Shown here one piece after another: positions 5,777 to 61,368 of a stretch of DNA of 64,000 bases (positions within the stretch are counted from its first letter, which is position 1; each line of letters starts with the position of its first letter). Made by a program: the position numbers and the translations under genes. Location of the stretch: positions 124,001 through 188,000 of the forward strand of contig WHUZ01000087.1 in NCBI GenBank assembly GCA_015179045.1, in the 5' to 3' direction. The notes beneath the pieces are model-generated. The model was not told where the DNA came from and ran no database searches. It saw nothing but the letters and a program-made list of their open reading frames with translations. Origin of the DNA: Kalaharituber pfeilii (taxonomy: Eukaryota; Ascomycota; Pezizomycetes; Pezizales; Pezizaceae).

Positions 5777-7610
5777 CAGCGAAAGTCGCTGCCATATAGT
5801 AAGTAGCAGGAGAAGGACACTGTGGGTGCTATATTGCGCCACTTGCTCAATAGTATCCAGGGATGCAAATCAAAGTCTACATATATAGGATAGTACGGGA
5901 AACATCCTCTTAGGAATCCTATTCCTATCGAAGTGCGTTTGCGGAATGCGGGGTCAATGTCTTGTTTTGCACGCGATCACTGATATCAACAAAAAAAAAA
6001 AAAAAAAAAGGCTTGTTTATTTATTTGTCTGCTTTTCCTATACCTGTTGTTTTCTTATACAATGTGCTATTCAATCTTGATTGCCAATGATCGCTGTTTC
6101 TGCATTCTTGTGTTTTTAGTAATACTTCGAAGTGAATTTTCTTGAGTATGGCATACTTGGATTACAGTAGAAGCGAGGGGCGTTTCAGGAGGTACAGTAT
6201 GCAAAGGCCAGCCACTTGTTCAACGTCGTAAGATGGTCGGGTAGCGGTGCGTGACTTCGCCCTGGATCTCCATTGTAAGAGTGGAGTCTTTGAGAAGCCC
6301 CTCTTTCATTCTCCCCGGAGCCCTCCTTAAATACCTCTCCTTGCATGGCCCTTTTCAAGCTACTGTACATAACCACTTCGGTGTAGGAGGAGCACCTTAC
6401 ATCAGTGTACTTCCGGGTCCAGCTTACCTCAATAGGAAGGCATCTCCTTGCAGGACCCTTCCCAAGCTACTGTACATCCACCCGCCGCCTCACAGTACAC
6501 CGCTACCACTCCAGCACGTCACCATGAGTAGCTTAGTCCAGGCTGTGGCGAGTCCCCAGTGTATGTCCGGGCAGCAGCTCGATGGGACGGGTACAGTACT
6601 GTCGCAAACGCGTCTGGGTGCGGTGGGGGATCTTGGCATTTCCCGTGCCATGGTGAGGGAAGGCCGGAGAGGGAGGTAACTACTAGAAGGGGAAGGGGGT
6701 ACCGGGAAGGGAAGGGTATTTAATGAGGGGAGAAGAGGGGAGGCCTCAGAGGAGGATCATCATCGTTACAAGGTTGAAGGAAGTGAGATCCATAGACCTC
6801 GATCAATTCCAGCTTCTTGCTCCTTCTTCCCTCTAGTCCACTTTCCTCCCCTACAGTACCAGAGCCCACCGTGACACAGCACTCGTCCCGCGAGAAGCAG
6901 CGGGACGAGCATCCACCAGGTACCGTGTGGCGGCCACACGAAGCCCCTTCCCAAACTAGCCGCGCAGTGTACGCCCGCAAGTGCTAGCATGAGACTAGCA
7001 CCCTTGCTCCTAATCTAGTAGTCATGACCCCCGACCGAAGGGAGGGCTCCCTCTGCGCGGCCATGAGGGCCACACGGAGCCGCAACGTCCCCAGGACCAT
7101 CCACATGGGTTCTCGTGCGACACGTCTCCGCTGCCATGCTGTCCCATTCCAGACCGCCGCTTTCACGCACAGTACAAACAGTCAAGTGTATTTGCCAGCC
7201 TGAGGGATCCACACCCTCAGCGCGCTCAAAATCACTGCTCAGGCGCTGTCCAGCATCGACGCCTCCGCCATAAATCCTCCCTCCGCGTCTGCCACCATGC
7301 GCGCCAGCCAGCGGCACCAGGACCTCCCGCATCGGCTGCCGTCTCCCGCCAGCAGTCTGCACCAGCTACATCCCCATTCCGCTTTGCAAAGATATCTAGC
7401 TCAACAACCCTGTTGCGAAGCAGTCCCATGGGCGAAGTGGAAAGATGCTGTATGGATTCAAGATACTTTTGTCACAGGGTAGAGAGTCACCGTTCACAGC
7501 TAATGACGGTTTCCAATCCTGCCTTCTAACTCCCTTCGGGCGAGGAAGAACAAGGCATCGCCGCACATAGTAGTCAACATTGGTTGTATTACCAAGCGCC
7601 TTCTTCACCG
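5777..7610. other. 1.8 kb with no recognised gene
   Basis: A run of A's (5992-6010) may be an old retroelement tail. Two imperfect direct repeats (6340-6373 and 6444-6479, sharing CAAGCTACTGTACAT) lie about 105 bp apart. A perfect 10-bp hairpin (CTCGTCCCGC/GCGGGACGAG) lies at about 6882-6910. Reading frames here are short and resemble nothing I know. Confidence 0.3.
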
Positions 7611-7623
7611 GAGAGTGTGACAA

Positions 7624-7727
7624 TTTTTTTTTTTTTTTTTTTTTATATCATTTATCGCATGCCGCCCTATGGGCTATGGCGATGTTTAGCTAAAATAAAA
7701 GAAGCATTCCCGCCAGAAGTCACCAAT
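7624..7727 (-). mobile_element. F1 short retroelement copy
   Basis: Poly-T then CATTTATCGCATGCCGCCC, the F1 tail on the minus strand, with about 40 bp of its upstream part. TSD GAGAGTGTG(A/G)CAA at 7611-7623 and 7728-7740. The outer hairpin pairs are of the ATCGC/GCGAT type. Confidence 0.85.
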
Positions 7728-14968: not shown

Positions 14969-15041
14969 ATGTACTTAACAACGCCATAGCCCTCAGGGCG
15001 GCAAGCGTGTAATGAAATTAAAAAAGAAAAAAAAAAAAAAA
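14969..15041 (+). mobile_element. F1 copy with variant hairpin
   Basis: TACTTAACAACGCCATAGCCC, then GGGCGGCAAGCGTGTAATG and an A-rich tail. The outer stem is ACGC/GCGT instead of TCGC/GCGA, a paired change. The TSD is unclear. Confidence 0.75.
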
Positions 15042-16111: not shown

Positions 16112-16167
16112 TTTTTTTTTTTTTTTTTTTTATTTCATTAATCGCATGCCGCCTATGGCTATGGCGA
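16112..16167 (-). mobile_element. F1 copy with 13-bp TSD
   Basis: Poly-T, CATTAATCGCATGCCGCC. TSD AAAGATTTGAGAT at 16099-16111 and 16168-16180. One pair has been lost from the inner stem on both sides (GCC/GGC instead of GCCC/GGGC). Confidence 0.9.
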
Positions 16168-16663
16168 AAAGATTTGAGATACGGCCGGAGAATACATTAT
16201 TGCTAGTCAAGAAAATGCGTTTACACGCAAAAACACAGGTATCCAGCGAGGAGAAAACTTGGACTTGTTAAGTGTTTCGATATTGATAAGGAGGTATGGC
16301 GCAAGGTGGAAGAGAGATGAGAGGGCGCATTGGAGCGAGTGGTCAAGAATGGATGACCGGGAGGTGCCGCAGCGAATAATAGTATATTATGCAATTCTTG
16401 CTTGCTGAAGGTGTTTTCTATGGAAAAAAGCAATTGTTTCACCGTGTGATACACGTGATACTCATTCTCCGCTAGCTAAAGCATAAACGAACGAAATAAT
16501 AATGTGCATCATGTGGCAAGTCATCATCATTTTCCAAACTACGAACAGAATCATAAAATGAATACCCAGACATCCGCATCGCTCACACATATTCCACTAA
16601 CCCTATTCTAATACTCCAATCATTTCCAAAGTGAAGCCCTTAGCCCACTTTCAGCCAGCTCTG
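16168..16663. other. non-coding, 3' flank of the BTB/H-lectin gene
   Basis: I see no gene. This AT-rich stretch probably includes the 3' UTR of the minus-strand gene starting beyond it. Confidence 0.3.
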
Positions 16664-18473: not shown

Positions 18474-18530
18474 TGAATCGCCATAGCCCGTGGGCAGCAT
18501 GCGATCAATAAAACATAAAAGGAAAAAAAA
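18474..18530 (+). mobile_element. F1 copy
   Basis: AATCGCCATAGCCCGTGGGC, GCATGCGATCAATAAAA and an A-rich tail. The ATCGC/GCGAT stem is kept. It lies between the first two exons proposed for BTB/H-lectin copy 1. No clear TSD. Confidence 0.65.
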
Positions 18531-20468: not shown

Positions 20469-20530
20469 CTTTTTATTTTTTATTTTTTTCTAATATCATT
20501 ACTCGCGTGCCGCCCTGGGGCTATGGCGAG
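20469..20530 (-). mobile_element. F1 copy with 12-bp TSD
   Basis: T-rich tail, CATTACTCGCGTGCCGCCC and GGGCTATGGCGAG. TSD ATACT(C/T)GGATTC at 20457-20468 and 20531-20542. The stem is of CTCGC/GCGAG type. Confidence 0.88.
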
Positions 20531-20814
20531 ATACTTGGATTCAGCGATATTGAATTAGCCTTGTAGTATTCAAGATTAACATGTCATATCTGCATCTAGT
20601 GGAGAACGTAACAATATGAAAGCACCAAGACCATAAAGGAAATAAATTTTCCCATTCTGTACAAGTTGGTGATCTGCTTCACAGTCGTATACAGTACTAG
20701 ACGGTGGGGATGTGTTCGGGAACAAGACATACAGTACATGAGCGGCGATATGGGCAATGAAATAATGCCTGTAAGCACTATTGCTATTGGCACTATGACC
20801 TCAAAGCCTGTATG

Positions 20815-22199
20815 TTCTCGCCTGGACGGGGCGCAGGCGAGGGCGATCGTCCGGGAAGTGGAAGCACCGTCGGAGCTAGCGGAGCTATGCACGACGGACT
20901 TCAGGCCGGGGAATGAGGAGAGGGAAGAGGAAGCGAGGGACTGGAAGGACTGGGGGGTGCAGTGGGCACTGGGGAAAGAAGACGGGTATGAGGCGGTGTT
21001 GGACCGCTGGCAGAGCCAGTGGTCTAGGTTCTCAGAAGAGGGGGAGGAGATCTCGTGGGGGGGGAAGTGTGAGAAGGGGCAGGTGGAAGTGGTGGAGAGG
21101 CGGAAAGGAGAAGTGGAGACGAGGGGGGAGTGGGAAGTCGCGATCGGGGAAGCTGGAAGAGAAAGGGCGGTCCTTTTCTCCGACGGCAGCAAGATCGAGG
21201 ACAGCAAGGTGGGAGCAGGAGTGTGGGGGAGGTCGGCAGCGGTGGCGGAGGTGGTGGGGAGAACGGCGACGGTTTTCGATGGGGAGGTGAGGGGAGTGAG
21301 AAAGGCGCTGGAGAGTGTAGAGGAGGAGGTCCCTGTACTGATCTGTTTAGACTCTGAGGCTGCCATCATGGCGATCCAGAAGGCAGGCAGGGAGGGAAAG
21401 GGAAAAACCGAGGATGTGAGAAGAGTGGTGGATGCCGTGGCGAGGAGAAAGAAGAAGGGAGGGGACGCGAAACTGATGTGGGTCAAGGCTCATATCGGAA
21501 TTGCAGGGAATGAGAAGGCTGATGAGTGGGCAAAGAAGGGGACGGCGGTGGAAGGGAAAGAGGTGGCCACCGGGAGCGGGGTGCGCCAGAGGATTAAGGC
21601 GTGCAGGAAGGAGAGGAGGGAGGTGGAAGGTTTCGGGAGGGGGAAAGTAATGGAGTGGAATAGGACAGCGCTGTCCAACTTCACAGCATTGCGACCGGAG
21701 AGAGGAAGATGCAGGGTGTGGTTAAAGAGGATGGGAGTGGCGGAATCGGAGAAGTGCAGCTGCGGGGAGGCCCAGACGGGGGCGCACCTAGCCTTCCAGT
21801 GCAGTCAGCAGAGGTTTCGCCCAGAAGGCTTTAGAGAATGGGGGATATGGAGAAGAACTGGAAAAGGACAGCAGAGAATGGGCAGGAGTGGGATGAGTTG
21901 GAAAGGTTCTTCTCCGGGATCAGGTTCTAGGGCGCCGTGCGGTTTGCTGTCGGGGAAGTTTGCTTGCCGGGGTGCGAAAGTGTGGAGAAGAGGGGAGGGG
22001 GGAGAGGGGGAGATATATAGTGGAACCTCCCTGAGGCAGAAACCGGAAGGTCCGTCCGGAGGTTTCTGGAATCAGGTGGTAGAAGTAGATAGAAATTTCT
22101 TTGTTTGTTAAGCCTGTCTCCGGGCTTCGAGGGCTTGCCCAGGGACCCTGCCATGGCCACGTGCTACAAGCGGGGTTATGTGATTTAAAAAAAAAAAAA
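20815..22199 (+). mobile_element. 5'-truncated Tad-like LINE with RNase H domain and F2 tail
   Basis: The coding region runs from 20815 to about 21930. It covers the end of ORF2: a Trp/Glu-rich spacer, RNase H (LFSDGSKIEDSKVGAGVWGR, CLDSEAAIMAIQ, WVKAHIGIAGNEKADEW) and a Cys/His motif CSCGEAQTGAHLAFQC. A missing G near 21840 shifts the frame just before the expected end (ERFFSGIRF, stop about 21930). The 3' UTR carries the F2 tail (GGGCTTGCCC hairpin at 22131-22140, CCCTGCCATGGCCACGTGC) and poly-A. The 9-bp TSD GCCTGTATG lies at 20806-20814 and 22266-22274, outside an F1 tail that follows the LINE tail. This copy links the F2 tail to a LINE. Confidence 0.88.
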
Positions 22200-22265
22200 A
22201 AAAAAAAAATAGCCCATAGGGCGGCACGCGAGTAATGATATATTTAAAAAAAAAAAAAAAAAAAG
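22200..22265 (+). mobile_element. F1 tail following the LINE poly-A
   Basis: ATAGCCCATAGGGCGGCACG, GCGAGTAATGATAT and poly-A, joined directly to the LINE's own poly-A run. The LINE's right-hand TSD comes after this second tail. Confidence 0.85.
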
Positions 22266-22927: not shown

Positions 22928-23013
22928 CCGTCTCACAGTGGTCTTTCTTTTTTTTTATTTTCTATCATTACTCGCATGCCGCCCTGTGCCTACGGCGAGG
23001 TATTAAGTACATA
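22928..23013 (-). mobile_element. F1 copy with upstream segment
   Basis: T-rich tail, CATTACTCGCATGCCGCCC, then GGCGAGGTATTAAGTACATA, the F1 segment upstream of the hairpin. The TSD is not clear. Confidence 0.7.
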
Positions 23014-26062: not shown

Positions 26063-26132
26063 TATGTAACTAAATCGCCATAGCCCCCAGGGCGGCACGC
26101 GATCAATGATAAAAAGAAAAAGCAAAAAAAAA
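26063..26132 (+). mobile_element. F1 copy
   Basis: TAAATCGCCATAGCCCCCAG, GGCGGCACGCGATCAATGAT and an A-rich tail. Stem ATCGC/GCGAT. Only a weak AACTAA duplication. Confidence 0.75.
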
Positions 26133-28326: not shown

Positions 28327-28413
28327 AAGGGGAGAGGGAGACGCTGGTCCTCCCTCTCCAAGCCGCGTGAGTTGCGAAATCACCCCCCATACCTTTGTTT
28401 TTTCTACACATAT

Positions 28414-29487
28414 ATGCCCCGGTGCCTTATGACCAGTCGCAACTACAGAACTCGCTCACAAACCTCTCGCTCACAAACACCAAACGCTATATCGACATCC
28501 ACCATGCACGCTGGGCCATCTGCTGGGCAAATGGGTTTGTTCGACGAACAAGTCCCAGAAACCCCACCAGCAAACCAGAACGCAGCACCCGCCACAGCAC
28601 CCTCCGCAGCACCCTCCGCGGCTATAGACGAGGATAGAATCGTACAACGGGTGCTACAGGGCCTCCTGGCTGCACAGCAACGGGCAACCCCAGCAGGACC
28701 GATAATACCAGCCTCGGAGGTATCACAGAATGAGGGTAATGACCCCCGCACCCTCCCCCTTCACACAGAATACCCAGCGGTAGACCCGGCTATCTGGCGG
28801 GAGATACTGGAGGGCCGTTTCAAGGCGGAGAACCTCTTAAAGATCAATGCCTCCTTCTACCCCCTTACCGCGGCAAGGAAGCGGAAACAAGAAACCTTGA
28901 CATTGGGACCATACGAAATCCCAACAACCACCCGCGATGTGGAGATCGAGGAATACCGCTCAATTCACACGCTCATGCAGCCTTTCGAGGTATATTGCCA
29001 GGCCCTGGTCCAATTCGCCCCGCAGGGCGTCAAGCTCCGCCTGAGCGCAGCTCTAGCCTTCTATAGGCACCGCTTATACGACCTCTACCATCTGCACACA
29101 TGGGAAAGCATCCGGGTTTTCCACGTGGCGTTTCATCAAAAAAGGATCCTCCTCGACGTCTATGACCCTCAAGGCTGGCGGGAACAGGATCCCACACTGC
29201 AACATCTGTTAATGAGACGCCTACCACGAATGTCGACAGAGCACCTACCGGCAAGCGACGCAAAACGCCAGAAATCATGGGGAGCACCAGCAGCACCGTC
29301 ACAGGGCCCAAGCCCCACCCCATGCTTCCGCTTCAATCAGGGCACATGCAGAAGCCAAAACTGCCGATACGCACACATCTGTATTTCGTGCGCCAAACCC
29401 CACCCAAATTGCCAACAAGGTGCCAATGCACCGGCTACGGGGGCAAATGCAACATCATTTGCGGATCGCATCCAAGCCTCGAGGTAG
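28414..29487 (+). CDS. DIRS-like gag protein with CCCH zinc finger
   Basis: From ATG 28414 (MPRCLMTSRNYRTRS) the frame gives 357 aa. The N-terminus is Ala/Pro-rich and low complexity. A helical centre follows (DPAIWREILEGRFKAENLLK; HTLMQPFEVYCQALVQFAPQ). Near the end a finger CFRFNQGTCRSQNCRYAH (C-x7-C-x4-C-x3-H) is followed by a second Cys/His cluster ICISCAKPHPNC. Gag proteins of DIRS-type elements often carry such fingers and bind the element RNA. The frame is intact. It is followed by a gap of about 60 nt before RT-like sequence begins. Confidence 0.72.
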   Translation: MPRCLMTSRNYRTRSQTSRSQTPNAISTSTMHAGPSAGQMGLFDEQVPETPPANQNAAPATAPSAAPSAAIDEDRIVQRVLQGLLAAQQRATPAGPIIPASEVSQNEGNDPRTLPLHTEYPAVDPAIWREILEGRFKAENLLKINASFYPLTAARKRKQETLTLGPYEIPTTTRDVEIEEYRSIHTLMQPFEVYCQALVQFAPQGVKLRLSAALAFYRHRLYDLYHLHTWESIRVFHVAFHQKRILLDVYDPQGWREQDPTLQHLLMRRLPRMSTEHLPASDAKRQKSWGAPAAPSQGPSPTPCFRFNQGTCRSQNCRYAHICISCAKPHPNCQQGANAPATGANATSFADRIQASR

Positions 29488-29549
29488 CAATTAGAGGGAG
29501 GATCACTAGGGGTAGTAATTAAATCAAATGATTATCCTAGCTCTGAATC

Positions 29550-31539
29550 CTCCGTATATTTTCCATATCACGTGACGTCCCGCAGTGACCATCCCGCAGA
29601 ATTGACCCAGGCCCGCTTCAGGCCGAAGGTTGGGCCCGCTGGCTAAAGAACCACCCAGACCGCTATTATGTTAATACACTCATAAGAATAATCCAATATG
29701 GGGCCAAGATAGGCTACACCGGGCCAGCCCAGCAGATCTTAATCAAAAACCTCCCATCCGCAAACGACGCCCCACAGGTCCTTACGAAAGACCTCCAAGA
29801 GCAGATTTCCCATGGACGGGTTGGTCAGGTCGCAGTACTACCAGAGAATTTTATCTCCTTCCCTAGGCCTTGTCCCAAAAGCTGATGGACGTACGAGGCA
29901 GAAAGAGGACGGAGATGATTGGACCCACTGACCCTTTCCCCCCGCAATACCATGTTAACCGCGGGCATCATGTACTTAAGACGTTTTTTTTTTTTCTTTC
30001 CTTTCAAATAAAACCCTCGCCATAGCCCACAGGGCGGCATGCGAGTAATGAAATAAAAAAAAAAAAAAAAAAAAAGCTGATGGAGGCTGGCGGAGGATAC
30101 ACCACCTATCACACCCACATGGCAACTCAGTCAACGACCACATACCACCCTCGTGGGGCACCCTCGTATATGTCAAGTTCGACGAAGCACTTGCGGCAGT
30201 GGCAAAAAAAGGGAAGGGTGCCATTCTGGTAAAACGAGATTTAGCCAATGCATTCCGCCACATCCCAGTGTCCCCCGAGGACTGGTGGCTACTAGGCTTC
30301 TCCTGGGAAGGAAGCTGGTGGTATGACAAGTACCTACCATTCGGCCTCCGGACCTCGCCCTTCATTTTTGATCTATTCGCAAAAGGGCTACGATGGATCC
30401 TGGAAACCGAGAAAGGCTGGGAGGACATACTCCAATACCTAGACGACTTCTTAAAGGTGCTACATCCACATGCGGATGCAAGTCAGTATGAGCAAGATTT
30501 CGCACAAATCTGCCGGGATCTCGGATTCGAAATCAAGGAGTCCAAAAGCCTACGGTCGACAGTAGCCGAATTCCTAGGAATTCTAATAGACACGAATGCC
30601 ATGCAAGCACGCCTGCCATCAGATAAGCACGCAAAGGCACTCCTACTCCTGAGGCTCTACCTCAAACGCCGGTCACTAACCCTACTCGAACTTCAATCGT
30701 TAACGGGTTTCCTATCGTTCGCGGCAAAAGTGGTACCTATGGGCCGTACCTTCCTGAGACGCCTATATAATGCGCTTTCATCTTACTCCGCACTTAATCG
30801 AAGGTGCCATATCACCGCCGACATGCGAGCAGATCTGCACTGGTGGCTAAATTTCCTCCCATCCTGGGACGGAGTGTCAATTATTCACGCCAATCGGCGA
30901 GAATTCGCTCTTTGGACCGACGCCTCAGGACGTAAAGGAATTGGGGGGTATTACCTACCAAAAGAGGGAGACTCAATGTATGACCTCACGACTATTCCAC
31001 TGGAAAACGCCTTTTCCACGAGAGTGCCTCGCAGGCATCGGGACAAGCACATAAACTTCAAGGAGATGGCCGCAGTCCTCCACTCCCTCCGGCGTTGGGG
31101 AAAAATATGGCATGGTGCTCGCGTGCACATCCACAATGACAACACCGCAGTGGTAAATGGCCTCGCTAGGCGAACAATGAAAGGGGCCGCAATGGACCCC
31201 CTCCGGAAAATCACTCTTCTGAGTGCAAAGGAGGATATTGAGTTGATTGTTCATTGGATACCCACAGGGGAAAACACACTAGCAGATGCTTTATCCCGGT
31301 TCGAGTTCAAGAAAGTAGCTAACCTTGCACCACAGCTGTCCAGGTTACAGACGCCCAAGTCACATATGACCCACCAGAGTCATGGTACAACGACGTTCCA
31401 GACCTCCCGCGACGAGCAGCCAGATACCTCTGGTGGGGACTCTCAGCAACCACCAGACGAACATACCATACCGCGAGACGGGAATATGCACTCTTTTGCG
31501 CCCTCTCCGGTGCCAACCCCTTCCCCGCAACTGCAGTGA
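29550..31539 (+). pseudogene. DIRS-like reverse transcriptase/RNase H, interrupted by an F1 insertion
   Basis: Sequence before the insertion reads QAEGWARWLKNHPDRYYVNT and, in another frame, SLGLVPKADG. After the 182-bp insertion it resumes GWRRIHHLSHPHGNSVNDHI. The RT then runs openly to 31539: KRDLANAFRHIPV, YLPFGLRTSPFIFDLFAKGL, catalytic YLDD in ILQYLDDFLKVL. RNase H follows: FALWTDASGRKGIGGYYLP, HINFKEMAAVLHSL, VHIHNDNTAVVNGL, LADALSRF. An upstream frameshift plus the insertion make this copy non-functional, though the catalytic core after 30199 is intact. Confidence 0.8.
29890..30071 (+). mobile_element. full-length F1 SINE-like unit (182 bp) inside the DIRS RT
   Basis: Begins CGTACGAGGCAGAAAGAGGA, contains CCGCGGGCATCATGTACTTA, the F1 hairpin (CTCGCC...GCGAG) and poly-A. 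TSD AAAAGCTGATGGA at 29877-29889 and 30072-30084. It has the same length and the same 5' sequence as the unit at 55785-55966. Confidence 0.92.
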
Positions 31540-32339
31540 TGCTCTGTGAGTGGGTCGCCTCTCTAGCAGGAAAAGTCAAAACAGAGACTATGAAGCTATA
31601 CCTCACTAGACTGCGGTCCCTGCATGTGGACCTAGGCCACTCAGTCGAAGCCTTCCAGGACCTGAGGCTCCAAAGGATATTAAGGGGTATCAAACGTTTT
31701 CATGGGGAAACCCCGGCACGTCGAGAGAGACTACCCATTACGAGGGACCTCCTCCTCCGGATAGTGGACCAGTTCGGCCGATCACTGGACGATATAGCAT
31801 TACATGCTGCCTTTTGCTTAGCCTTCGCAGGGTTCTTACGAGTTGGAGAATTCACCTGGTCAACCTGGGAGCAGGACGCCCCACAATGGCACCTCACCCG
31901 CAGGTCCATCCAATTCGCGGAGTCACGGGTATACGTGACTCTGCCGGCAAGTAAGACTGACCCCTTCCGGCGCGGAATAACCCTCACAGTCGCAGCAGCT
32001 GGAGATGCGGCATGCCCGGTAACCTCCCTCCAACGGCTGTACCAGCTGGCACCAGCAGCACCAGAAGCCCCACTCTTTTCTCGTCAAAACGGGCTTCCAT
32101 TTACACGGGATCATGTGGTGAATACACTCCGCCGTATACTGGGTCAGCTAGGCATAGGTGGCCAGTACTCAGGCCACTCCTTCCGTAGAGGGGCTGCAAC
32201 CTCAGCGCAGAGGGCAGGGCTATCGAAGGAAGAGATTCAGCTGCTAGGAAGATGGAAATCAGAGGCATACCAGCGGTATATCGAGGTCCATCCGGAGCAC
32301 GTTTTCCAACTCGCACGGCGACTGCATCACCCTCAGTAG
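31323..32339 (+). CDS. DIRS-like tyrosine recombinase
   Basis: The frame is open from 31323 and has an ATG at 31539 that overlaps the RT stop (TGATG). Conserved residues: Arg in LAFAGFLRVGEFTW; HSFRRGAATSAQRAGL (H-x-x-R); LLGRWKSEAYQRYIEVHPE with the Tyr nucleophile. The N-terminal core-binding part ARYLWWGLSATTRRTYHTAR lies upstream of the ATG in this frame and overlaps the RT frame, which is open at the same time. Full-length protein therefore probably needs a -1 shift out of the RT frame within 31323-31539, or a non-ATG start. Such enzymes insert the circular cDNA without target duplication. The frame is intact to 32339. Confidence 0.82.
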   Translation, partial: PCTTAVQVTDAQVTYDPPESWYNDVPDLPRRAARYLWWGLSATTRRTYHTARREYALFCALSGANPFPATAVMLCEWVASLAGKVKTETMKLYLTRLRSLHVDLGHSVEAFQDLRLQRILRGIKRFHGETPARRERLPITRDLLLRIVDQFGRSLDDIALHAAFCLAFAGFLRVGEFTWSTWEQDAPQWHLTRRSIQFAESRVYVTLPASKTDPFRRGITLTVAAAGDAACPVTSLQRLYQLAPAAPEAPLFSRQNGLPFTRDHVVNTLRRILGQLGIGGQYSGHSFRRGAATSAQRAGLSKEEIQLLGRWKSEAYQRYIEVHPEHVFQLARRLHHPQ

Positions 32340-33359: not shown

Positions 33360-33942
33360 CATTACTCACATGCCGCCTCACATATCGGTCGCTCAATCGG
33401 TCGCTCAATCCGTCGCTCAATCGGTCGCTAAAATCGGTCCTGCAACCTGTTCACCCACCCTGTCGCTTGAATTAAAGAATTCATAAGATCGTTTTTATTA
33501 TCGTTGTTTGCGTACTATTGATGCATATAGTGAAGGGTTAACTTATGGTACTAAGGAGTTTCATTCACATATATATAAAGGTTATAGACAGGTACCAGAT
33601 AAAACGAAGTGGTAAAAGGGGGTATGCATAGGAAAATGTATATATTCTATTCTATTTTGGGTTAGCTATTTTCTTTTTTTGGTTAGTTTAACATGTACTA
33701 TACCATATTTAGCAGTTACGAAAAGTTGACATTTTTACCCATTCCCATATAAAACTTCTTATCTTTGATTTTCAAATCACGATGACAAAAAAGTAAATAA
33801 ATAGATATCACTTCAAATTATTATTTTTCATTCACTAGTCTATCATTTTTTGATTCAAAATCAATTTTATTATTTATTTTGGTTGTGACTTGAGTGTTGA
33901 AGTTGATGCGAAATTCACTCCGTGTACAGATGTCCCCAACCA
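33069..33942. mobile_element. 874-bp TIR element with TA target site
   Basis: TGGTTGGGGACATCTGTAC at 33069 and its inverse ending at 33942, each next to TA (33067-33068, 33943-33944). The interior has no transposase. Part is AT-rich (about 33640-33900), and an F1 copy has inserted. Probably a mariner-type MITE. Confidence 0.75.
33329..33378 (-). mobile_element. ultra-short F1 copy with 12-bp TSD
   Basis: Poly-T plus TATGTCATTACTCACATGCC: only about 23 nt of body. TSD CACATATCGGTC at 33317-33328 and 33379-33390. It is followed by CGGTCGCTCAAT repeats. Confidence 0.92.
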
Positions 33943-35892: not shown

Positions 35893-35954
35893 TTTTTTTT
35901 TTTTTTTACTTGCATGTCGCCCTGTGGGCTATGGCGAGACTAGGTACAAAAGAA
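35893..35954 (-). mobile_element. F1 copy in the foldback centre
   Basis: Poly-T, ACTTGCATGTCGCCCTGTGG, GCTATGGCGAGACTAGGTAC. Imperfect TSD CACATA(TA/G)GTT. The stem has a G:U-type change (CTTGC/GCGAG). Confidence 0.75.
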
Positions 35955-39175: not shown

Positions 39176-39189
39176 GTTCAAGTCCTGTA

Positions 39190-39248
39190 ATCGCCATAGC
39201 CCCTAGGGCGGCACGCGATTAATGATATATATAAAAAAAAAAAAAAAA
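39190..39248 (+). mobile_element. F1 copy with 14-bp TSD
   Basis: ATCGCCATAGCCCCTAGGGC, GGCACGCGATTAATGATAT and poly-A. TSD GTTCAAGTCCTGTA at 39176-39189 and 39249-39262. The copy begins exactly at the first base of the outer stem. Confidence 0.95.
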
Positions 39249-39312
39249 GTTCAAGTCCTGTATGTTGGTGCGTGAACTAAGTATATATGTGGCGGTTCAA
39301 TGGACACGTGAC

Positions 39313-40557
39313 ATCTTCCTGGACAACAACCACCTCAGGACGAGCGTTTGGAAGCGACTCCACAACCACAACGTCCCCCCCGCTGAAACCCACATAGATC
39401 GAAAGCTCTCGGCGAGCCGAGTACTTTGATCTAATTTTTATTCCCAAATACGGTTTTCCCCCGAGGGGTTAAATCGCGAGGAATTCTCAGCTCAACACCT
39501 CGTTGCCAACACATCAACCACGCTAAGCCGGCGCCAAGCACCAATCAGCCCACACGGATTAGAGAAAACAGCCAACCAAATGCCAAAGGGAAAGAAGACA
39601 AAATCGACGGCTCCGCCCCCCCCTCCCCCGGTAGCGGAGACAGACAAAAAGACATGGCAAGAGGCATGGGGGGACGCCCTCATAGACATATGGCAGTTTG
39701 AAACCAAAGACGAGAACCTCCCAAAGGAGGGAGCGAGGCTGATTGTCACGTTTGTGCCTGGATCGATCATCGTACGGGCACTCCAGCCCAACGAGCCCAT
39801 ACCACGGCCACCACAGCCACTGGGGCTCAGCCCCATCACGACCGCAGAAACCGAGCCGGTCGAGCCACCACCACCACCACCACCACCACCGCCACCACCG
39901 CCACCAGCCCCACAGTTCAGCCCCATCACGTGGGTTGAATCCCAACCGGAGGCCCCCCAAGGAGGAAGAGGAAGGGCAAGAAGCCATCGCCCCAGACAAC
40001 ACAAGCTTCCTCTCCGGCGGCTCCCGCAGCCCCACCCACAACGCCGATCACGACCCCGGCCCTGACGACCAACACAAACCTCCCCCGCAATAGCCCACGC
40101 CCCCGCCCCCGCCCCCAACGACTCCAGACAAACCAAAAGGCACAATACGGCCTCGTCATACACGGCGTCGCCTTGAGAAAAGACCTCCACAAGGTAAGAA
40201 AGTGGATGGAATCAGACAACAAGGAGTTGGGCGAGACAACGGGCATCAGGTGGCTCCGAAAAAAGACTACCCTGTTAGACGAAGGAAAGAAGACAAGCTC
40301 GGTGGTCCTGTACCTGAAGACACAAAGGGAGGTTGGGAAGATCAGGCTTGGAGGAAGGTGGTTGCGCGCGGAGACGTACGAGCAGGACAGAGGGAAGAAA
40401 TAGGCTCGAGGCATCTCCCCACCCCACCCGAAACACTCTGAATACCTCGGGAAACACATGTAGTTAAGGATTTCTTTTGTTCTGAATTTTGTACCTAAAC
40501 ATCGTCATAGCCCATAGGGCGGCATACGATCAATGAAATAAAAAAAAAAAAAAAAAA
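39313..40557 (+). mobile_element. ORF1-only retroelement (element A) with F1 3' end
   Basis: It starts ATCTTCCTGGACAACAACCA, carries about 270 bp of leader, a gag-like ORF1 region (39580-40403), then ACATGTAGTTAAGG, the F1 hairpin (ATCGT...ACGAT) and poly-A. A perfect 13-bp TSD ATGGACACGTGAC lies at 39300-39312 and 40558-40570. No reverse transcriptase or endonuclease sequence is present. It is therefore a non-autonomous 'half-LINE', or a LINE that lost ORF2 before moving. Confidence 0.85.
39580..40403 (+). pseudogene. LINE ORF1/gag-like protein of element A, frames shifted
   Basis: ATG 39580 opens MPKGKKTKSTAPPPPPP, then WQEAWGDALIDIWQFETKD and GARLIVTFVPGSIIVRA, followed by long Pro runs. 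After frame changes in the Pro/GC-rich part, the conserved C-terminal domain appears: QYGLVIHGVALRKDLHKVRK, KTSSVVLYLKTQREVGKIRL, GGRWLRAETYEQDRGKK, stop at 40403. The same domain is found in element B (SSVVIYLEGEVE) and at the end of the ORF1 at 58266-58925, so it is the ORF1 nucleic-acid-binding domain of this LINE group (inference from position and similarity). Confidence 0.65.
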
Positions 40558-40570
40558 ATGGACACGTGAC

Positions 40571-40583
40571 GGCAAGCGAGTAT

Positions 40584-40620
<37 letters not shown>
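40571..40620 (+). mobile_element. ultra-short F1 copy at the same target as element A
   Basis: Only GGCAAGCGAGTATTGATTT plus poly-A, followed by a third ATGGACACGTGAC at 40621-40633. The body is about 19 nt. Confidence 0.92.
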
Positions 40621-40624
<4 letters not shown>

Positions 40625-40633
40625 ACACGTGAC

Positions 40634-41579
40634 TAATAATACCAATTTCCTTTGATGTCGGTCTAAGGTTTCACGATACAAATATGTCCTCAACCAATGA
40701 AAAAAGTGTAAACAGCCGTTAGATCGTAGAGAACGCGAGGTAGCTGTAACAGTTCATGATCTTAACACCATATTACCTGAAACAATCATTTGGCCTGTTC
40801 AGGTCGAGAAAACGTTTTCAAAGCCAGCAAACTCCTGTTCAATGCCATTAGTGTTTTTAATGTTTAACCTTGCGATAACGAAAAACAAAAATCGGGCTCT
40901 GTTTTTTTGTTATAGCAAGGTTTTCGCTATAACGAGTTTCGTTACAGCAAGGTTGGACTGAGTTACGTAACCCCGCATACAGGCTACCATCCTATGCCAG
41001 GGACACTAGTAGTTGTCACTGAACAACGGAGAATGGCTACCAGAAAGTACCACTACTAATGAGGCGCTTTTAGTGCCTTGGCCCCTTAGCTCATTGGTCT
41101 GTTGACCCGGTACCAACGTAACGCCTGTTACCGGTCTAACGCTAGTAACCTAGACTACTTTGCTGCAGACACCCCGCATTATCTCGCGCAGCACCTGCGC
41201 ATTCACATCCAGTGCGTATCTACAAACACAAATAACGTACACATATCCTATTCATATTTATGTCTTCATCTATTTTCTTCAAATCTAAATTAGAGTCTGA
41301 ATCTGAATTAAAAATCATAAGTGTCATGATAGCATTTACGTCACTCGTAAGCGCCTGTTGTATTACTGCTCGTTGACTTAGAGAGGGCATGTTGCACGTA
41401 AAGTTGATATGCGTATGCAATGTTGTGGGACATATTCGTGGTAATTCAGATTACTTACCAATAAATTTCGCGAGGGTAAAAGGGGTACCTCACGACACCT
41501 GCCTAGTTTGGTTGGCGTATTTTCTCTGGTAGTCATTCTCAGTTGTTCAGTGACAACCACTAGGTACTGTAGTTGCGTA
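40634..41579. other. non-coding with a pogo/Tigger-like terminus
   Basis: Read from 40961 leftward on the minus strand: CAGTCCAACCTTGCTGTAAC, then AACTCGTTATAGCGAAAACC and an inverse-repeated CTTGC(T)ATAAC motif down to about 40868. This is the style of pogo/Tigger termini (CAGT..., TATAACGA motifs). The partner end was not found. The rest is non-coding. Confidence 0.4.
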
Positions 41580-41660
41580 ACTAAACACCTCGCCATAGCC
41601 CATAGGGCGGCATGCGAGTACTGATATATTAAAAAAAAGAAAAAAAAAAGAGAAAAAAAA
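41580..41660 (+). mobile_element. F1 copy
   Basis: ACCTCGCCATAGCCCATAGG, GCGGCATGCGAGTACTGAT and an A-rich tail with G's. Stem CTCGC/GCGAG. TSD not clear. Confidence 0.78.
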
Positions 41661-41882
41661 ATTTGACGGTACTGAAAACGCCTCGATTTCGAGACTGCCT
41701 CAATTTGGGGGTGAACGCGCTTCTTTAACTAGAGTAGTTTACGGACCTATAGTATCAGACACTGTGGCTAAATTAAGAACTGATGGCGTTGTGAAGAAGG
41801 CGACAGAATGGCAGCTTGGGACTGGAACGCACGTGGAGATAAGGACGGCACGTGAGACGTTTCATCAATATCATAATGTTTT

Positions 41883-41965
41883 ACATGTACCTAAACATCG
41901 CCATAGCCCCTAGGGCGGCAAGCGATTAATGATAGATAAAAATAAAAAAAATAAATAAAAAAAAA
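41883..41965 (+). mobile_element. F1 copy with upstream segment
   Basis: ACATGTACCTAAACATCGCC, CGGCAAGCGATTAATGATAG and an A-rich tail with T interruptions. A weak ATGTA duplication. Confidence 0.78.
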
Positions 41966-42475
41966 ATGTATATAGACCTTCGGTACTGTAGGGTTTGTTC
42001 AATGAACAAACCTCTTCTCCTTTCTTTTGATTAGTGGATACTACCTGTTTTATCTTACAGCGTTCAACAGGAGTCTGTGAGTTTTCTGTTAGCATCGAAA
42101 GATTTTCTTTCTCATTCTGGTCGGCTCGCGAATCCGGTGCAATCGTGAATTAAACTTTTTTACGCCCCTAGATGAAAGGGTTTTCTACACCAATAATGGA
42201 ATTTTTCACACAGCGTCGTTGATTTTAATTCTCTTCTATCATGCTGCTAGGATCTATGCAATGTATATCCTCCGTAGTCCTCAGTAGACAAAGTAGCCAG
42301 AATACCCTAACCATGTACATAGGGCATGAGGTTGCCCTGCGACCCGTTGACGTCCATTGACGACCTCCACAGATATCCGACATACAAGCTAGCTCTGAAC
42401 TGTCATATCCGATCAGACATTACCACACGATACCAACACATCCATACATACAGTGATCCGTAAAAAGTCTTGGAG
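41966..42475. other. non-coding
   Basis: Nothing recognised. Confidence 0.3.
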
Positions 42476-42563
42476 ATAGTGAGCGGCACGAGCCGAGCCA
42501 GCTCGAGCTCGACTGATCTTGAGCTCGAGCTTGAGACAGCCAAAATCACGCTAGTGTTTCTCT

Positions 42564-42602
42564 TTTTTTTTTTTTTTTTTTTTACCATTACTCGCATGCC
42601 GC
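42564..42602 (-). mobile_element. ultra-short F1 copy with TSD
   Basis: Poly-T plus ACCATTACTCGCATGCCGC, a 19-nt body. TSD AGTGTTTCTCT at 42553-42563 and 42603-42613. Confidence 0.92.
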
Positions 42603-42694
42603 AGTGTTTCTCTTGACAGCTCGCTAAAATGCTTAGCTAGTGCAGGGTTTCATAAACTGTAAATACCTAACATGGTAATAAATTAGAGACTCGG

Positions 42695-42750
42695 TTCATC
42701 TATGTACTTAAACATCGCCATAGCCCACAGGGCGGCACGCGATTAATGAA

Positions 42751-42785
<35 letters not shown>
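42695..42785 (+). mobile_element. F1 copy with 10-bp TSD
   Basis: TTCATCTATGTACTTAAACA, the hairpin ATCGC...GCGAT, then about 45 A's. TSD AGAGACTCGG at 42685-42694 and 42786-42795. Confidence 0.92.
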
Positions 42786-43974: not shown

Positions 43975-44724
43975 TTTTTATTTTTTTTTTATTTTCACAT
44001 AACCCGCTTGCAGCTGTTCGCCATGGCAGGGTCCCTGGACCGAGGTCCTTATGGCCCGGAGACAGGCACCTAAAACAAACAACAACTCACTATATACACC
44101 GACATTCAAAAGGGAATAGAGGAAATAAAACCCATGAGACAACCCGCTATGCCGTCAAGTCCATTTCCTCCACCTCCCTCCCCTTCCCCTTTCTGTCCAC
44201 CTTTGAATTTCTATCCCAGTCATACAGGCACGAATCGTACCACTTGCCTGACAACCTTACCTTCGCTGGTGTTTGGCTATCCGATTCCACCTCCCCCTCC
44301 AGGTAGATGACAACCGAGCTAGCCTTCTTTCCCTCCCTCCTCTCTTTCTTCACCAACCATCTTGCCAATCTTTCCCATCCATGGGTTCGCATTCTCCATC
44401 CAATCTCTTACTTTCCCGAGTTTCTTTGTCACCGCAATTCCACATACTACGATCGCACGACGGGATTGCGGGAGTGTCCTTTCCTTTGGGATTGGCTTCG
44501 GAGATGGTGCTGGAGATGGTTTCTTGGACATTTTCTGCTTGGGGGGACTGGTACTCTGTCCCCCTTTCACTTTTTTGGACTGGAAAGCAGTGGACTTTGT
44601 TCGGCTTTTGGGTGGTGCCACCGGAGGTCGGTCAGAATTGTCCCCTTCCGGGGGTGTGCTTGGCGGGATGTTCTGGGAGACAACTGCTGCATATGACAGC
44701 TTTGGTGGTTTCTCCGGGTCAGTT
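43975..44724 (-). mobile_element. ORF1-only retroelement (element B) with F2 3' end
   Basis: Flanked by a perfect 14-bp TSD ACTACTTGGAGATT (43961-43974 and 44725-44738). From its 5' end on the minus strand: DPEKPPKLSYAAVVSQNIPP, Pro/Ser/Lys-rich linker, RRAIVVCGIAVTKKLGKVRD, then after one frameshift SSVVIYLEGEVE and RLSGKWYDSCLYDWDRN, stop about 44147. The F2 tail follows directly (GGACC/GGTCC hairpin at 44037-44048, CCATGGCAGGG) and poly-A. No ORF2 sequence is present. Its 5' end lies inside ORF1. Confidence 0.85.
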
Positions 44725-48736: not shown

Positions 48737-48800
48737 TGTTTTTTTTTAAAATTTTCAGTAATCGCTTGCCGCCCTAAGGGCTATGGCGACGTTTAGTTAC
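48737..48800 (-). mobile_element. F1 copy
   Basis: T-rich tail, AGTAATCGCTTGCCGCCC, GGGCTATGGCGACGTTTAG. The outermost pair is mismatched (A/C). TSD not clear. Confidence 0.75.
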
Positions 48801-48942: not shown

Positions 48943-48991
48943 CATTACTCGCGTGCCGCCCTAGGGGCTATGGCGAGGTTTTAGTTACATG
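48911..48991 (-). mobile_element. F1 copy
   Basis: Poly-T, CATTACTCGCGTGCCGCCC, GGCGAGGTTTTAGTTACAT. A second, truncated F1 piece (about 48996-49033, CATTACTCGTATGCCGCC) abuts it. Confidence 0.82.
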
Positions 48992-50240: not shown

Positions 50241-50367
50241 AGTGGCATTCCCTGATTGAAGAGTCCATCTATGATCTCTTGTTTCTATACAGCTAGGTAG
50301 CTTCGTATCTGGCGCATTGTGATGAACCAATTCCCATACCCCCGAACTCCCAACGTCCCACCTTACC

Positions 50368-50426
50368 TCGCCATAGCCCCTAGGGCGGTATGCGAGTAAT
50401 GATATAAAAAAAAACAAAAAAAAAAA
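50368..50426 (+). mobile_element. F1 copy with 14-bp TSD
   Basis: TCGCCATAGCCCCTAGGGC, GGTATGCGAGTAATGATAT and an A-rich tail. TSD CG(T/C)CCCACCTTACC at 50354-50367 and 50427-50440. Confidence 0.92.
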
Positions 50427-54779: not shown

Positions 54780-55784
54780 GAGGAGGTAGCAGACTCGGAC
54801 GTGATAATTGGAGATTGCAACAGCCATCATCAGGACTGGAGCGACAAAGAAGACCGGAGGGGAGCGGCGTTGAGGGACACCCTTCGAGCCCATGGACTGA
54901 TCCAACAGATAGACAAGGGCACGGTGACGTGGACACGCATAGTCGAAAGGTCAGCGAGGAGGGCATTGCTAGACTTGGTTTTCACAAGACGAGGGGAATG
55001 GAGGACGAGGGGAATAACCTGGATAGCAGGAGCAGATCACGCGATGATACACAGTGGGCTAAGGATAGGAAGCACAGGCACGAAGACGATCAAGGTCACC
55101 GACTGGGATAGATGGGAGGACTTCGTGAGAGAGGCGGGAGAGAAGCCGTTGAGGGATGGAGTAAATGCATACGACTTGTTGACCAGACTGAGCGGAACAT
55201 TCACCAAAGAGGTGCGCATCACAGACAGGTCGAAGAGGTGGTTTGACAAGGAGGTAAAGGCGGCACGCAAGTTGACGAAATATATACTAAGGAACGGAGG
55301 CACACGAGAAGAGAAGACAAAGGCCAGGAGACTACTGAGAGACATCATACGGGAAAAGAAGATGTACTGGGAGGAGTACATGGAAGAAGATCTTTTTTTA
55401 TATGTTTTTTTTTTTAATTTCATTACTCGCATGCCGCCCTATGGGCTATGGCGAGGTATTTATTAACTAACAAAACGGAACAACAAAAAACTAAGCGCTA
55501 AATACATGTATTGCCCGCGTGTCCTTCGTGATGGAAGAAGATCGGATAACATCGCCATGGGACATATTTAGGCTAGCACGGGACCCGTTTAGACAACGCG
55601 ACATGATGGACATCCCAGGAACGGAACAGGAGATCACGGAAGCCATCATCGAGCAGAATTTCATCACGACAGGGGAATGCAACCCGCAGAACCCCCGAAG
55701 GCCGACAGGACCGATCACCGACCGAGAGGACGCCAGACGAGCCATAGAAAGAGCACTGACAAAGACGAAGTCGAAATCGGCACC
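54780..55784 (+). pseudogene. LINE ORF2 endonuclease and RT start, split by F1 insertions
   Basis: The APE-type endonuclease C-terminal half reads DVIIGDCNSHHQDWSDKEDR (GDxNSHH), KGTVTWTRIVERSARRALLD and ITWIAGADHAMIHSGL (D-H pair). A linker leads to EEYMEEDLF, where an F1 unit (55393-55530) has inserted. Coding resumes MEEDRITSPWDIFRLARDPF to AIERALTKTKSKSAP. A second F1 unit (55785-55966) splits the RT entry motif: after it comes KSAPGSDGIQYGVLKLLK (the APGPDGI-type RT motif). Then the frame passes into ORF1-like sequence, so the RT itself is deleted. Confidence 0.75.
55393..55530 (-). mobile_element. F1 unit (138 bp) with 13-bp TSD
   Basis: T-rich tail, CATTACTCGCATGCCGCCC, GGCGAGGTATTTATTAAC and an upstream part with AAATACATGTATTGCCCGCG. 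TSD ATGGAAGAAGATC at 55380-55392 and 55531-55543. Confidence 0.93.
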
Positions 55785-55966
55785 CCAGTACGAGGCGGAG
55801 AGAGGAAGGAGATAAGACAGACTGCTGGCTGTTTTCCCCGCAACACACATACAGACCCGCGGGCCCCATGTATTTAAGTTTAGTTAGTTACTTTCCTTTT
55901 AAATAAAACCTCGCCATAGCCCGTAGGGCGGCATGCGAGTAATGAAATAAAAAAAAAAAAAAAAAA
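55785..55966 (+). mobile_element. full-length F1 SINE-like unit (182 bp) with 12-bp TSD
   Basis: CCAGTACGAGGCGGAGAGAG start, GACCCGCGGGCCCCATGTAT, the hairpin CTCGCC...GCGAG and poly-A. TSD GAAATCGGCACC at 55773-55784 and 55967-55978. Confidence 0.93.
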
Positions 55967-59814: not shown

Positions 59815-59935
59815 CATTACTCGCGTGCCGCTCTATGGGCTATGGCGAGTTTTTTATATATCATAGAGTAATGCACCGTCCTTTTTTTTTTAATTACTCG
59901 CATGCCGCCCTATGGGCTATGAGGAGATTATATAC
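59781..59935 (-). mobile_element. two adjacent F1 copies
   Basis: The first (about 59781-59855) has a long poly-T, CATTACTCGCGTGCCGC and GGCTATGGCGAG, with TATATATC on both sides. The second (about 59882-59935) has AATTACTCGCATGCCGCCC and GGGCTATGAGGAG. An extra poly-T block precedes them at 59751-59771. Confidence 0.78.
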
Positions 59936-60680: not shown

Positions 60681-61368
60681 TTAAAGAAGAACAAAGAGAT
60701 TCTGTGCTTAACTTAAACTTGGTTAAAGTCAGGTTTGGGATAATACTACTCTATGAAGAGCAGTAGGAGTTTTTTTTTTTCATGAAACGTATTCCTACTT
60801 TCAGCTGTTCGCCATGGCAGGGCTAGATCTGTAGTCTAATTGCATTGTATAGGGCAGCTTATATTGCTTTCCATGGCTCCTAATAACGCCTTAGCATAGG
60901 CACAAAGTACTCACATTCAGATTTTTTTTTTTTCTAATATCATTACTCGCATGCCGCCCTGAGGGCTATGGCGAGATACTAAGTACAAAGGAGAAAATGG
61001 AAGTAAAGTGAAGTAAACAGGCACCAAACACAATGTTTGCAGCTACTAACTCGCGTGCTACTGATCTACCCACCTCAAGAGTTCTACCAATGGGTCCTCT
61101 CTCCTTCTCTTGTTTCCGGTGGTCTGTGCATCGCTTCCAGCCTGCCAGGCCACCTCCTCCTCCAAAACCTGCACCTCTCCCATAGGTGTGAAGTCGTTTC
61201 CTCCTCGTTCCCGCACCACCTGCATTCCGGTCCGTTTATAGAAAATGAGTAATAATCATTCGCCTAGCACTAGTCTTTTCAGTTAAAGTTAATAAATGTA
61301 TATAGGAATTATATAGAATACACGCACCTTCAAATATATAGAAGAAATTCATATTCTCGAGCTAATCT
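60681..61368. other. flank with F1 and F2 remnants
   Basis: An F2 piece CAGCTGTTCGCCATGGCAGG lies at 60802-60823. An F1 copy (CATTACTCGCATGCCGCCC, GGGCTATGGCGAG) lies at about 60921-60985 on the minus strand. No gene seen. Confidence 0.6.

What the first reader, a model, noticed from the sequence alone, without database searches (positions are those of the whole stretch)
39190..42785. F1 retroelement tail carries a hairpin with compensatory base changes
All F1 copies end with a stem N-TCGC ... inner GCCC-nnn-GGGC ... GCGA-N'. Between copies paired positions change together: ATCGC/GCGAT (39190, 42695), CTCGC/GCGAG (30015, 55910), ATCGT/ACGAT (40505) and ACGC/GCGT (14979). The inner stem loses one pair on both sides at 16112. 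Several independent double changes are strong evidence for a selected RNA structure, likely the recognition site of the LINE reverse transcriptase.
Basis: partly seen in the sequence, partly recalled or inferred. Interest (0 to 1): 0.82.

Follow-up and report, generated by a model that had tools for sequence, protein, structure and literature searches.

The report
Covarying 3' hairpin of fungal LINEs
Thousands of jumping-gene copies in this truffle genome end in one small RNA hairpin whose paired bases change together, most likely the handle their copying enzyme grips, and about a third of the insertions that could be delimited in a sample consist of little more than that hairpin.

Summary
The host is Kalaharituber pfeilii. 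The hairpin pattern has 8,315 hits (up to 3 mismatches) in its 78-Mb assembly, the reversed control none. Three stem pairs show genome-wide double changes: outermost C-G 2162, A-T 1225, mixed 30 and 20; inner closing T-A 727, mixed 26 and 55; a third T-A 91, mixed 36 and 41. On the best coding-sequence trees the outermost pair switches at least 5 and 6 times (4 and 3 well-supported contrasts). The tail ends both LINE ORF2 elements and ORF1-only elements; a second such set shares another hairpin tail, F2.

These F1 inserts are 45-80 bp with tail. I read the hairpin as the 3' recognition signal of a stringent-type LINE, and foot-starts as RNA trimmed to the protected hairpin. Enzyme binding and the cause of foot-starts are untested. 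Such tails are a known kind; my searches found no report of foot-starts.

The parts
39190..39219 (+). F1 hairpin (outer pair A-T), hairpin-only insertion 39190-39248 between TSDs
39176..39189 (+). target site duplication GTTCAAGTCCTGTA, 5' copy of the hairpin-only insertion
39249..39262 (+). target site duplication, 3' copy
39313..40557 (+). ORF1-only element (class A) ending in an F1 hairpin and A-tail, between TSDs 39300-39312 and 40558-40570
   Evidence: the reading frame is shifted in this copy
40149..40400 (+). conserved C-terminal domain of the ORF1-only protein (RRM-like in the model of a homologue, not significant)
40501..40530 (+). F1 hairpin with double change ATCGT/ACGAT
40571..40620 (+). 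F1 insertion truncated inside the hairpin (starts at GGCAAGCGAG), sharing the TSD of the ORF1-only element; third TSD copy 40621-40633
41589..41618 (+). F1 hairpin (outer C-G)
41897..41926 (+). F1 hairpin (outer A-T)
42591..42620 (-). nominal hairpin place of an F1 insertion that starts inside it (+16), TSD AAGAGAAACACT
42714..42743 (+). F1 hairpin (outer A-T)
7654..7683 (-). F1 hairpin
14980..15009 (+). F1 hairpin, A-T at the second pair (ACGC/GCGT)
16141..16170 (-). F1 hairpin with inner stem one pair shorter; hairpin-only insertion, TSD ATCTCAAATCTTT
18476..18505 (+). F1 hairpin
20502..20531 (-). F1 hairpin
22203..22232 (+). F1 hairpin lacking its 5' stem bases (ATAGCCC onwards), directly after an F2 A-tail; no TSD found
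22971..23000 (-). F1 hairpin (diverged)
26074..26103 (+). F1 hairpin (outer A-T)
30016..30045 (+). F1 hairpin (outer C-G), 5'-truncated insertion 29890-30071 between TSDs
33365..33394 (-). nominal hairpin place of an F1 insertion that starts inside it (+14), TSD GACCGATATGTG
35909..35938 (-). F1 hairpin (diverged)
48761..48790 (-). F1 hairpin
48948..48977 (-). F1 hairpin
50367..50396 (+). F1 hairpin
55426..55455 (-). F1 hairpin inside a LINE ORF, TSD GATCTTCTTCCAT
55910..55939 (+). F1 hairpin (outer C-G), 5'-truncated insertion, TSD GAAATCGGCACC at 55773 and 55967
59820..59849 (-). F1 hairpin
59897..59926 (-). F1 hairpin (diverged)
60946..60975 (-). F1 hairpin
44150..44474 (-). ORF1-only element of the second clade (A2), F2 tail 118 nt downstream
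20666..22111 (+). C-terminal part of an F2 LINE ORF2 (RNase H), F2 tail following

Best explanation
The hairpin is the 3' recognition signal of a family of stringent-type non-LTR retrotransposons (APE-type endonuclease, RT, RNase H; by recalled knowledge of fungal LINEs most likely Tad1 clade) in Kalaharituber pfeilii. The RNA forms a 5-bp outer stem (NTCGC/GCGAN'), an asymmetric CATA/GGCAN internal loop, a 4-bp inner stem (GCCC/GGGC) and a 3-nt loop, followed by a short spacer and poly(A). SHOWN here: the fold (by covariation and energy), its sharing by divergent LINE ORF2 elements and by ORF1-only elements, and insertion with 10-20 bp target duplications (10 was my minimum). INFERRED: the LINE ORF2 protein binds it and starts target-primed reverse transcription at the adjacent poly(A), and ORF1-only elements use the same enzyme in trans. 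SHOWN: about a third (F1) and half (F2) of TSD-bounded insertions in the sample begin at the 5' foot of the hairpin. INFERRED: many templates are 3' fragments of element RNA trimmed back to the protein-protected hairpin, so the hairpin plus A-tail is the minimal mobile unit.
For: 8315 hits genome-wide, reversed control 0. Genome-wide exact counts: outer C-G 2162, A-T 1225, A.G 30, C.T 20; inner closing T-A 727, C.A 26, T.G 55 against at least 3437 C-G (sum); pair 3:24 T-A 91, T.G 36, C.A 41 where independence predicts about 0.4. In 158 held copies weighted over 137 clusters, predicted pairs -2:28, 11:15 and -1:27 rank 1, 2 and 5 of the column pairs compared. Shuffle and slide controls. Four F1 sequences (three real, one composed) fold to this structure at -10.1 to -13.9 kcal/mol, 3.9-4.7 below the bulged alternative. 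Pair states switch at least 5 and 6 times on the best trees made without the tail. Tails follow 21 of 25 class A ORFs within 320 nt (a 22nd, L051, seen) and 18 of 29 F1-type LINE C-termini. Foot-starts: F1 29 of 98, F2 21 of 42; TSD median 12 for foot and long inserts alike, 21 hairpin types among 29 foot-starts.
Against: RNAalifold's own consensus on A1 gave a different 3-pair structure at -1.1 kcal/mol and did not recover this one. Copy counts are not independent events. The 5 and 6 switches include poorly supported branches (7 of 26 and 12 of 33 inner branches strongly supported); on supported branches there are 4 and 3 independent contrasts, none against the pairing but in some random pairings one without a difference, and neither test is significant alone (p 0.125 and 0.25). 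Pairs 1:26, 8:18, 9:17 and 10:16 show no double change in the 137 rows. Ranks 3 and 4 are not predicted pairs (-2:29, -6:-3). Tail exchange between elements could mimic repeated switching. Of the 29 foot-starts two repeat another copy's TSD, one (L031) has a 10-nt TSD that resembles the element's own spacer, and 9 have TSDs under 12 nt; the reversed-TSD control has two hits close by, at -8 and -7.
Confidence: 0.8

Rival explanations
1. Foot-starts arise at the cDNA stage: the first-strand cDNA folds its own complementary hairpin, which stops 3'-end resection at the hairpin base (and occasionally is opened at the loop), before second-strand synthesis.
For: Starts lie at the stem foot in two tail families; a small second group of starts lies at +14 to +18, loop and inner-stem 3' strand, 6 of the 7 starts inside +2..+18.
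Against: In F2 the commonest start (12 of 21) is the base just before CCCTGC, G in 9, A in 2, T in 1 (my count of the rows); in the copy folded it is a G paired with U, a pair that RNA has and cDNA would lack. One base, so weak evidence.
Confidence: 0.25
2. Foot-starts are reverse-transcriptase termination: the enzyme holds the hairpin as its anchor, copies it, and often falls off once the anchor is consumed.
For: The position coincides with the end of the recognition element in two families. In Magnaporthe MGL, template switching stops at GCC*A/U sites near predicted hairpins (PMC2104539, section 9 read).
Against: The stop lies after the hairpin has been copied, not before it, and the upstream sequence differs between families, so no shared obstacle lies ahead. 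An MGL-like stop GCC*A would lie inside the F1 hairpin; the only copy I saw that begins there is at window 22203, without a TSD.
Confidence: 0.25
3. The double changes are a mutational by-product (hairpin-templated correction during copying), not selection on the RNA.
For: Stem-loop templates can in principle be copied from their own arm; mixed forms are rare at the pairs counted.
Against: The internal loop CATA/GGCAN keeps its unpaired bases in 150-157 of 158 copies at each fixed position, which arm-templated correction would tend to repair; the apical loop and position 23 vary freely.
Confidence: 0.05
4. Two old tail lineages (A-T and C-G) explain the outer covariation by descent, without repeated compensation.
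For: One lineage difference could give large counts; position 29, next to the partner base, is partly linked to the outer pair (-2:29 ranks third).
Against: The state switches at least 5 and 6 times on the best coding trees and in 4 and 3 supported contrasts; in the rows printed, both states occur with many of the same loops; a G-C type and four other pairs with double changes exist.
Confidence: 0.07

Closest known systems
Stringent-type LINE 3' tails of the L2 clade (UnaL2, ZfL2-1, ZfL2-2)
   Same: A 3'-terminal stem-loop near the end of the element, needed for retrotransposition and bound by the ORF2 protein (PMC4176376, passages).
   Different: Different clade, different fold (internal loop CATA/GGCAN, variable 3-nt apical loop; in ZfL2 the loop carries specificity), poly(A) end; binding untested here.
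Plant L1 lineage and maize/sorghum SINEs with a conserved 3' hairpin
   Same: 3' hairpin with compensatory mutations shared by LINEs and non-autonomous partners (PMC3747384, section 4.3 read).
   Different: There the stem varies and loop UCU and flank CGAG are conserved; here the apical loop varies and stem and internal loop are conserved.
Fungal Tad1 LINE/SINE pairs: Mg-SINE/MGL, SINE2-1_BG/Tad1-24_BG (HaTad1-3, 1-5), AfuSINE2-1a/I-4_AO
   Same: Fungal LINE whose 3' end is shared by non-autonomous partners (PMC3747384 table, passage; PMC2104539 passages; PMC5063351 passages). HaTad1 is recalled as 'half Tad1', possibly the same kind as the ORF1-only elements here.
   Different: Partners here are coding ORF1-only elements; the SINEs named are tabulated or described as tRNA-related. 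No structure or covariation for those tails was in the passages read.
HAL1 (half-L1)
   Same: ORF1-only derivative mobilised by the LINE machinery (recalled, not read).
   Different: Here two ORF1-only clades each match the tail of a different LINE group.

Membership tests
Stringent-type LINE 3' tail | conserved, structured 3' tail just before the terminal repeat | tested here: met
   covariation and position before poly(A)
Stringent-type LINE 3' tail | same tail on a non-autonomous partner | tested here: met
   ORF1-only elements with F1 tails (21 of 25 class A rows) and F2 tails (5 of 6 A2 copies)
Stringent-type LINE 3' tail | ORF2 protein binds the tail and needs it for retrotransposition | not testable with these tools
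   no experiment
APE-type non-LTR retrotransposon (LINE) | endonuclease, RT and RNase H in ORF2 | tested here: inconclusive
   met for the F2 LINE L051, which has all three. For F1-tailed elements RNase H passes Pfam's cut-off in L034 (zf-RVT is below its cut-off) and RT similarity lies upstream of an F1-tailed RNase H in L032 and L033 by tblastn; no whole F1 ORF2 with endonuclease was held
APE-type non-LTR retrotransposon (LINE) | variable-length target site duplications, A-tail, 5' truncation | tested here: met
   98 of 195 F1 3' ends with 10-20 nt duplications (minimum set at 10); reversed control 13 of 195
Tad1 clade | RT phylogenetic placement in Tad1 | not tested
   no reference RT set at hand; clade recalled from fungal host and domain order
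ORF1-only (half-LINE) element | ORF1 kept under purifying selection, no ORF2, LINE tail | tested here: met
   dN/dS median 0.12 over 53 unsaturated of 91 pairs of an 84-codon domain; one of the 14 rows, L048b, is out of register; tails; TSD-bounded inserts of this class reach about 1.1-1.65 kb, too short for an ORF2
LINE ORF1p with RRM | RRM fold | tested here: inconclusive

The most novel reading that the evidence does not exclude
The 3' recognition hairpin plus A-tail is a mobile unit in its own right: element RNA is trimmed from its 5' end back to the enzyme-protected hairpin, and these roughly 60-nt ribonucleoproteins are integrated again and again from many LINE and ORF1-only lineages. 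That would make the hairpin foot a record of RNA decay or processing written into the genome, and the inserts among the smallest retroposons known.
Probability: 0.4. Interest if true: 0.75.

Novelty: new variant of a known kind. Interest (0 to 1): 0.55.

Why it matters
It gives a natural data set of thousands of copies for the 3' recognition signal of fungal LINEs, a group where tail sharing is known but no structure was shown in the passages I read. The foot-start pattern makes an old question, what decides where a LINE insertion is cut short, testable at a fixed position.

Tried and rejected
Bulged alternative (GCC/GGC pairing with an ATA bulge): 3.9-4.7 kcal/mol worse in four sequences and its extra helix shows no change on both sides; pair 3:24 covaries instead. 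RNAalifold consensus failed to find the fold. Rfam has no match in the window at the gathering threshold; no tRNA. hhalign of the ORF1-only domain with the F2 LINE ORF1: probability 1.4%, not counted. Relatives of the hairpin elsewhere: one pattern scan of viral contigs, 0; other eukaryotic genomes were not searchable here. 13 of 13 homologues of the ORF1-only protein and 11 of 13 of the F1 LINE C-terminus are from K. pfeilii; the other two are weak and unnamed or named ribonuclease HI. My first matcher missed inexact copies and was replaced. A GCC*A stop as in MGL does not explain the main start cluster. Notes 2 says 'top 3' for the mutual-information ranks; one search shows ranks 1, 2 and 5, as given here. 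Prior art searched; I saw their listings and, of four papers, passages or single sections; none of that describes starts at a LINE hairpin foot. Most subscription journals and preprints are not held.
Full report
What was checked. The window is G000:C347:124001-188000 of a 78.03-Mb assembly in 360 contigs. The 13 homologues found for an element protein from it are all labelled Kalaharituber pfeilii, and two lie on a contig of exactly the length of C2, so the host is this fungus (Pezizales). Position 1 below is the first C of CGCC; the full stem starts at -2.

How common. The pattern CGCCATAGCCCNNNGGGCGGCANGCG with up to 3 mismatches occurs 4214 + 4101 times; the reversed pattern 0 times. I could hold 355 kb of this (window, L001-L050), with 170 distinct copies at up to 6 mismatches, of which 158 with at most 4 mismatches and an A-rich tail were analysed; L051 (6.5 kb) came later. 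L001-L030 were taken from contig 1 by exact match and L031-L050 from copy-rich parts of contigs 2 and 3, so the sample is not random.

Structure. Column pairs at least 3 apart in 44 columns were ranked by corrected mutual information, each of 137 upstream-similarity clusters weighted as one. The predicted pairs -2:28, 11:15 and -1:27 rank 1, 2 and 5; ranks 3 and 4 are -2:29 (next to the partner) and -6:-3 (upstream of the hairpin). On 118 distinct rows, 95.9% of 1062 cells pair, 56 cells carry a change on both sides against 18.0 in shuffles, and slid structures score 0.009-0.047 against 0.172; five pairs have at least one double change, four (1:26, 8:18, 9:17, 10:16) have none. The alternative with a bulge has no double change in its distinctive helix and is 3.9-4.7 kcal/mol worse in the four F1 sequences folded, three real and one composed; the main structure is the minimum-energy fold of each. 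RNAalifold did not find it, a result against me.

Genome-wide double changes. Exact patterns counted over the whole assembly: outer pair C-G 2162, A-T 1225 (34), A.G 30 (35), C.T 20 (36). Inner closing pair T-A 727 (37), C.A 26 (38), T.G 55 (39); C-G is at least 3437, the sum. The 73 of the 91 that are printed with letters have many different loops. These are copies, not events. On the best trees built from coding sequence without the tail, the outer state changes at least 5 times among ORF1-only elements and 6 times among LINE C-termini, and inner T-A once and twice; many branches are weakly supported. On supported branches there are 4 and 3 independent contrasts of the outer pair: none goes against pairing, in some random pairings one shows no difference, and the sign tests (p 0.125 and 0.25) are not significant alone (which repeats part).

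Which elements carry it. Two kinds end in the F1 hairpin. LINE C-termini (RNase H E 1.6e-15 in L034; a zf-RVT match below its cut-off) are followed by it within 320 nt in 18 of 29 rows of the F1 group; RT-like stretches precede the RNase H in L032 and L033. ORF1-only elements, with open frames of 311-391 codons in the longest copies and a conserved C-terminal domain, are followed by it in 21 of 25 rows, plus L051 seen by eye. By eye the two kinds have unlike 3' UTRs. The ORF1-only domain is under purifying selection (median dN/dS 0.12 in 53 unsaturated of 91 pairs; one of 14 rows out of register), and its model resembles RRMs without reaching significance. A second tail, F2, ends a LINE with ORF1 (CCHC, seen) and EN-RT-RNase H ORF2 and also 5 of 6 copies of a second ORF1-only clade, A2, 34-55% identical to the first. 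So each tail has a LINE and an ORF1-only bearer.

Where insertions begin. I located target duplications of at least 10 nt after each A-tail. Of 195 F1 3' ends, 98 have one; reversed duplications give 13, none in -5..+1 but two near it, at -8 and -7. Starts: 54 more than 60 nt upstream, 6 in -60..-6, 29 in -5..+1, 1 in +2..+13, 6 in +14..+18, 2 at +22 and +23. Within -60..+18 the share at the foot has binomial p 2.4e-21 against uniform. Restricting to duplications of 12 nt or more leaves 20 at the foot and 6 in -60..-6. Two of the 29 repeat another copy's TSD and one (L031) is doubtful because its TSD resembles the element's spacer. Foot-start copies show 21 hairpin types, the same TSD median (12) as long copies, and total lengths of 45-80 bp, which suggests recurrent origin from many lineages by the same machinery. 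F2 repeats the pattern: 42 of 77 bounded, 21 in -2..+2, 12 of them at the base just before CCCTGC; the reversed control has 6, two of them within -5..+2. The F2 set of 42 includes two of a rarer tail and one F1 copy, none of them among the 21.

Mechanism. The anatomy fits a stringent-type LINE signal: in zebrafish L2 elements the 3' stem-loop is needed and is bound by the ORF2 protein between EN and RT (PMC4176376, passages). In a plant L1 lineage the 3' hairpin shows compensatory changes (PMC3747384, section read). Fungal LINE/SINE pairs are tabulated there, with HaTad1 names that I recall as half-Tad1 (passage). For the foot-starts I favour RNA trimmed to the protected hairpin, because the start lies at the outer edge of the structure, mostly 0-2 nt beyond the stem in F1 and at its outermost base in F2; cDNA resection to a DNA hairpin and enzyme termination remain open. 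Magnaporthe MGL chimaeras switch template at GCC*A/U near predicted hairpins (PMC2104539, section read), a related but different position.

Verdict. The hairpin is real, selected and probably the reverse transcriptase's recognition signal: a new variant of a known kind. The foot-start, hairpin-only insertions are the unexpected part.

Noticed in passing
window 44150-44474 (-), L032 6881-7210, L033 5379-5708, L047 9419-9565 (-), L048 6968-7141: Second ORF1-only clade (A2) carrying F2 tails, with a further upstream hairpin GGAC-TTCG-GTCC or GGAC-CTCG-GTCC; other F2 copies have GGGC-TT-GCCC or GGGTC-TA-GACCC at that place, which looks like another covarying stem (by eye).
   Followed up: partly
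rows L050 + 575, L017 - 676, L036 + 5589, L014 - 847 (strand coordinates); window about 40970-41006: Rarer 3' ends that share parts of CCCTGCCATA and TTAYGTGA with F2 but have other stems; possibly further members of one tail superfamily.
   Followed up: no
window 28372-32339 (+): RT followed by a phage-integrase-type tyrosine recombinase, a DIRS-like retroelement by recalled architecture, interrupted by an F1 insertion at 29890-30071.
   Followed up: partly
window 39300-40633: The same 13-nt target ATGGACACGTGAC occurs three times around two F1 insertions, so one site was used twice.
   Followed up: partly
L031 around 7499-7541 (-): Two F1 hairpins in tandem before one A-tail, a possible template jump or nested insertion.
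   Followed up: no
F1 hairpin position 23 and apical loop: Position 23 is A, C or T and never G in 158 copies; in the rows printed, loops with a T-A closing pair look different from those with C-G.
   Followed up: no
window 3144-5543 (+): Long ORF with 102-bp repeats, 84-89% matches per array; looks ankyrin-like by recalled motif, not tested.
   Followed up: no
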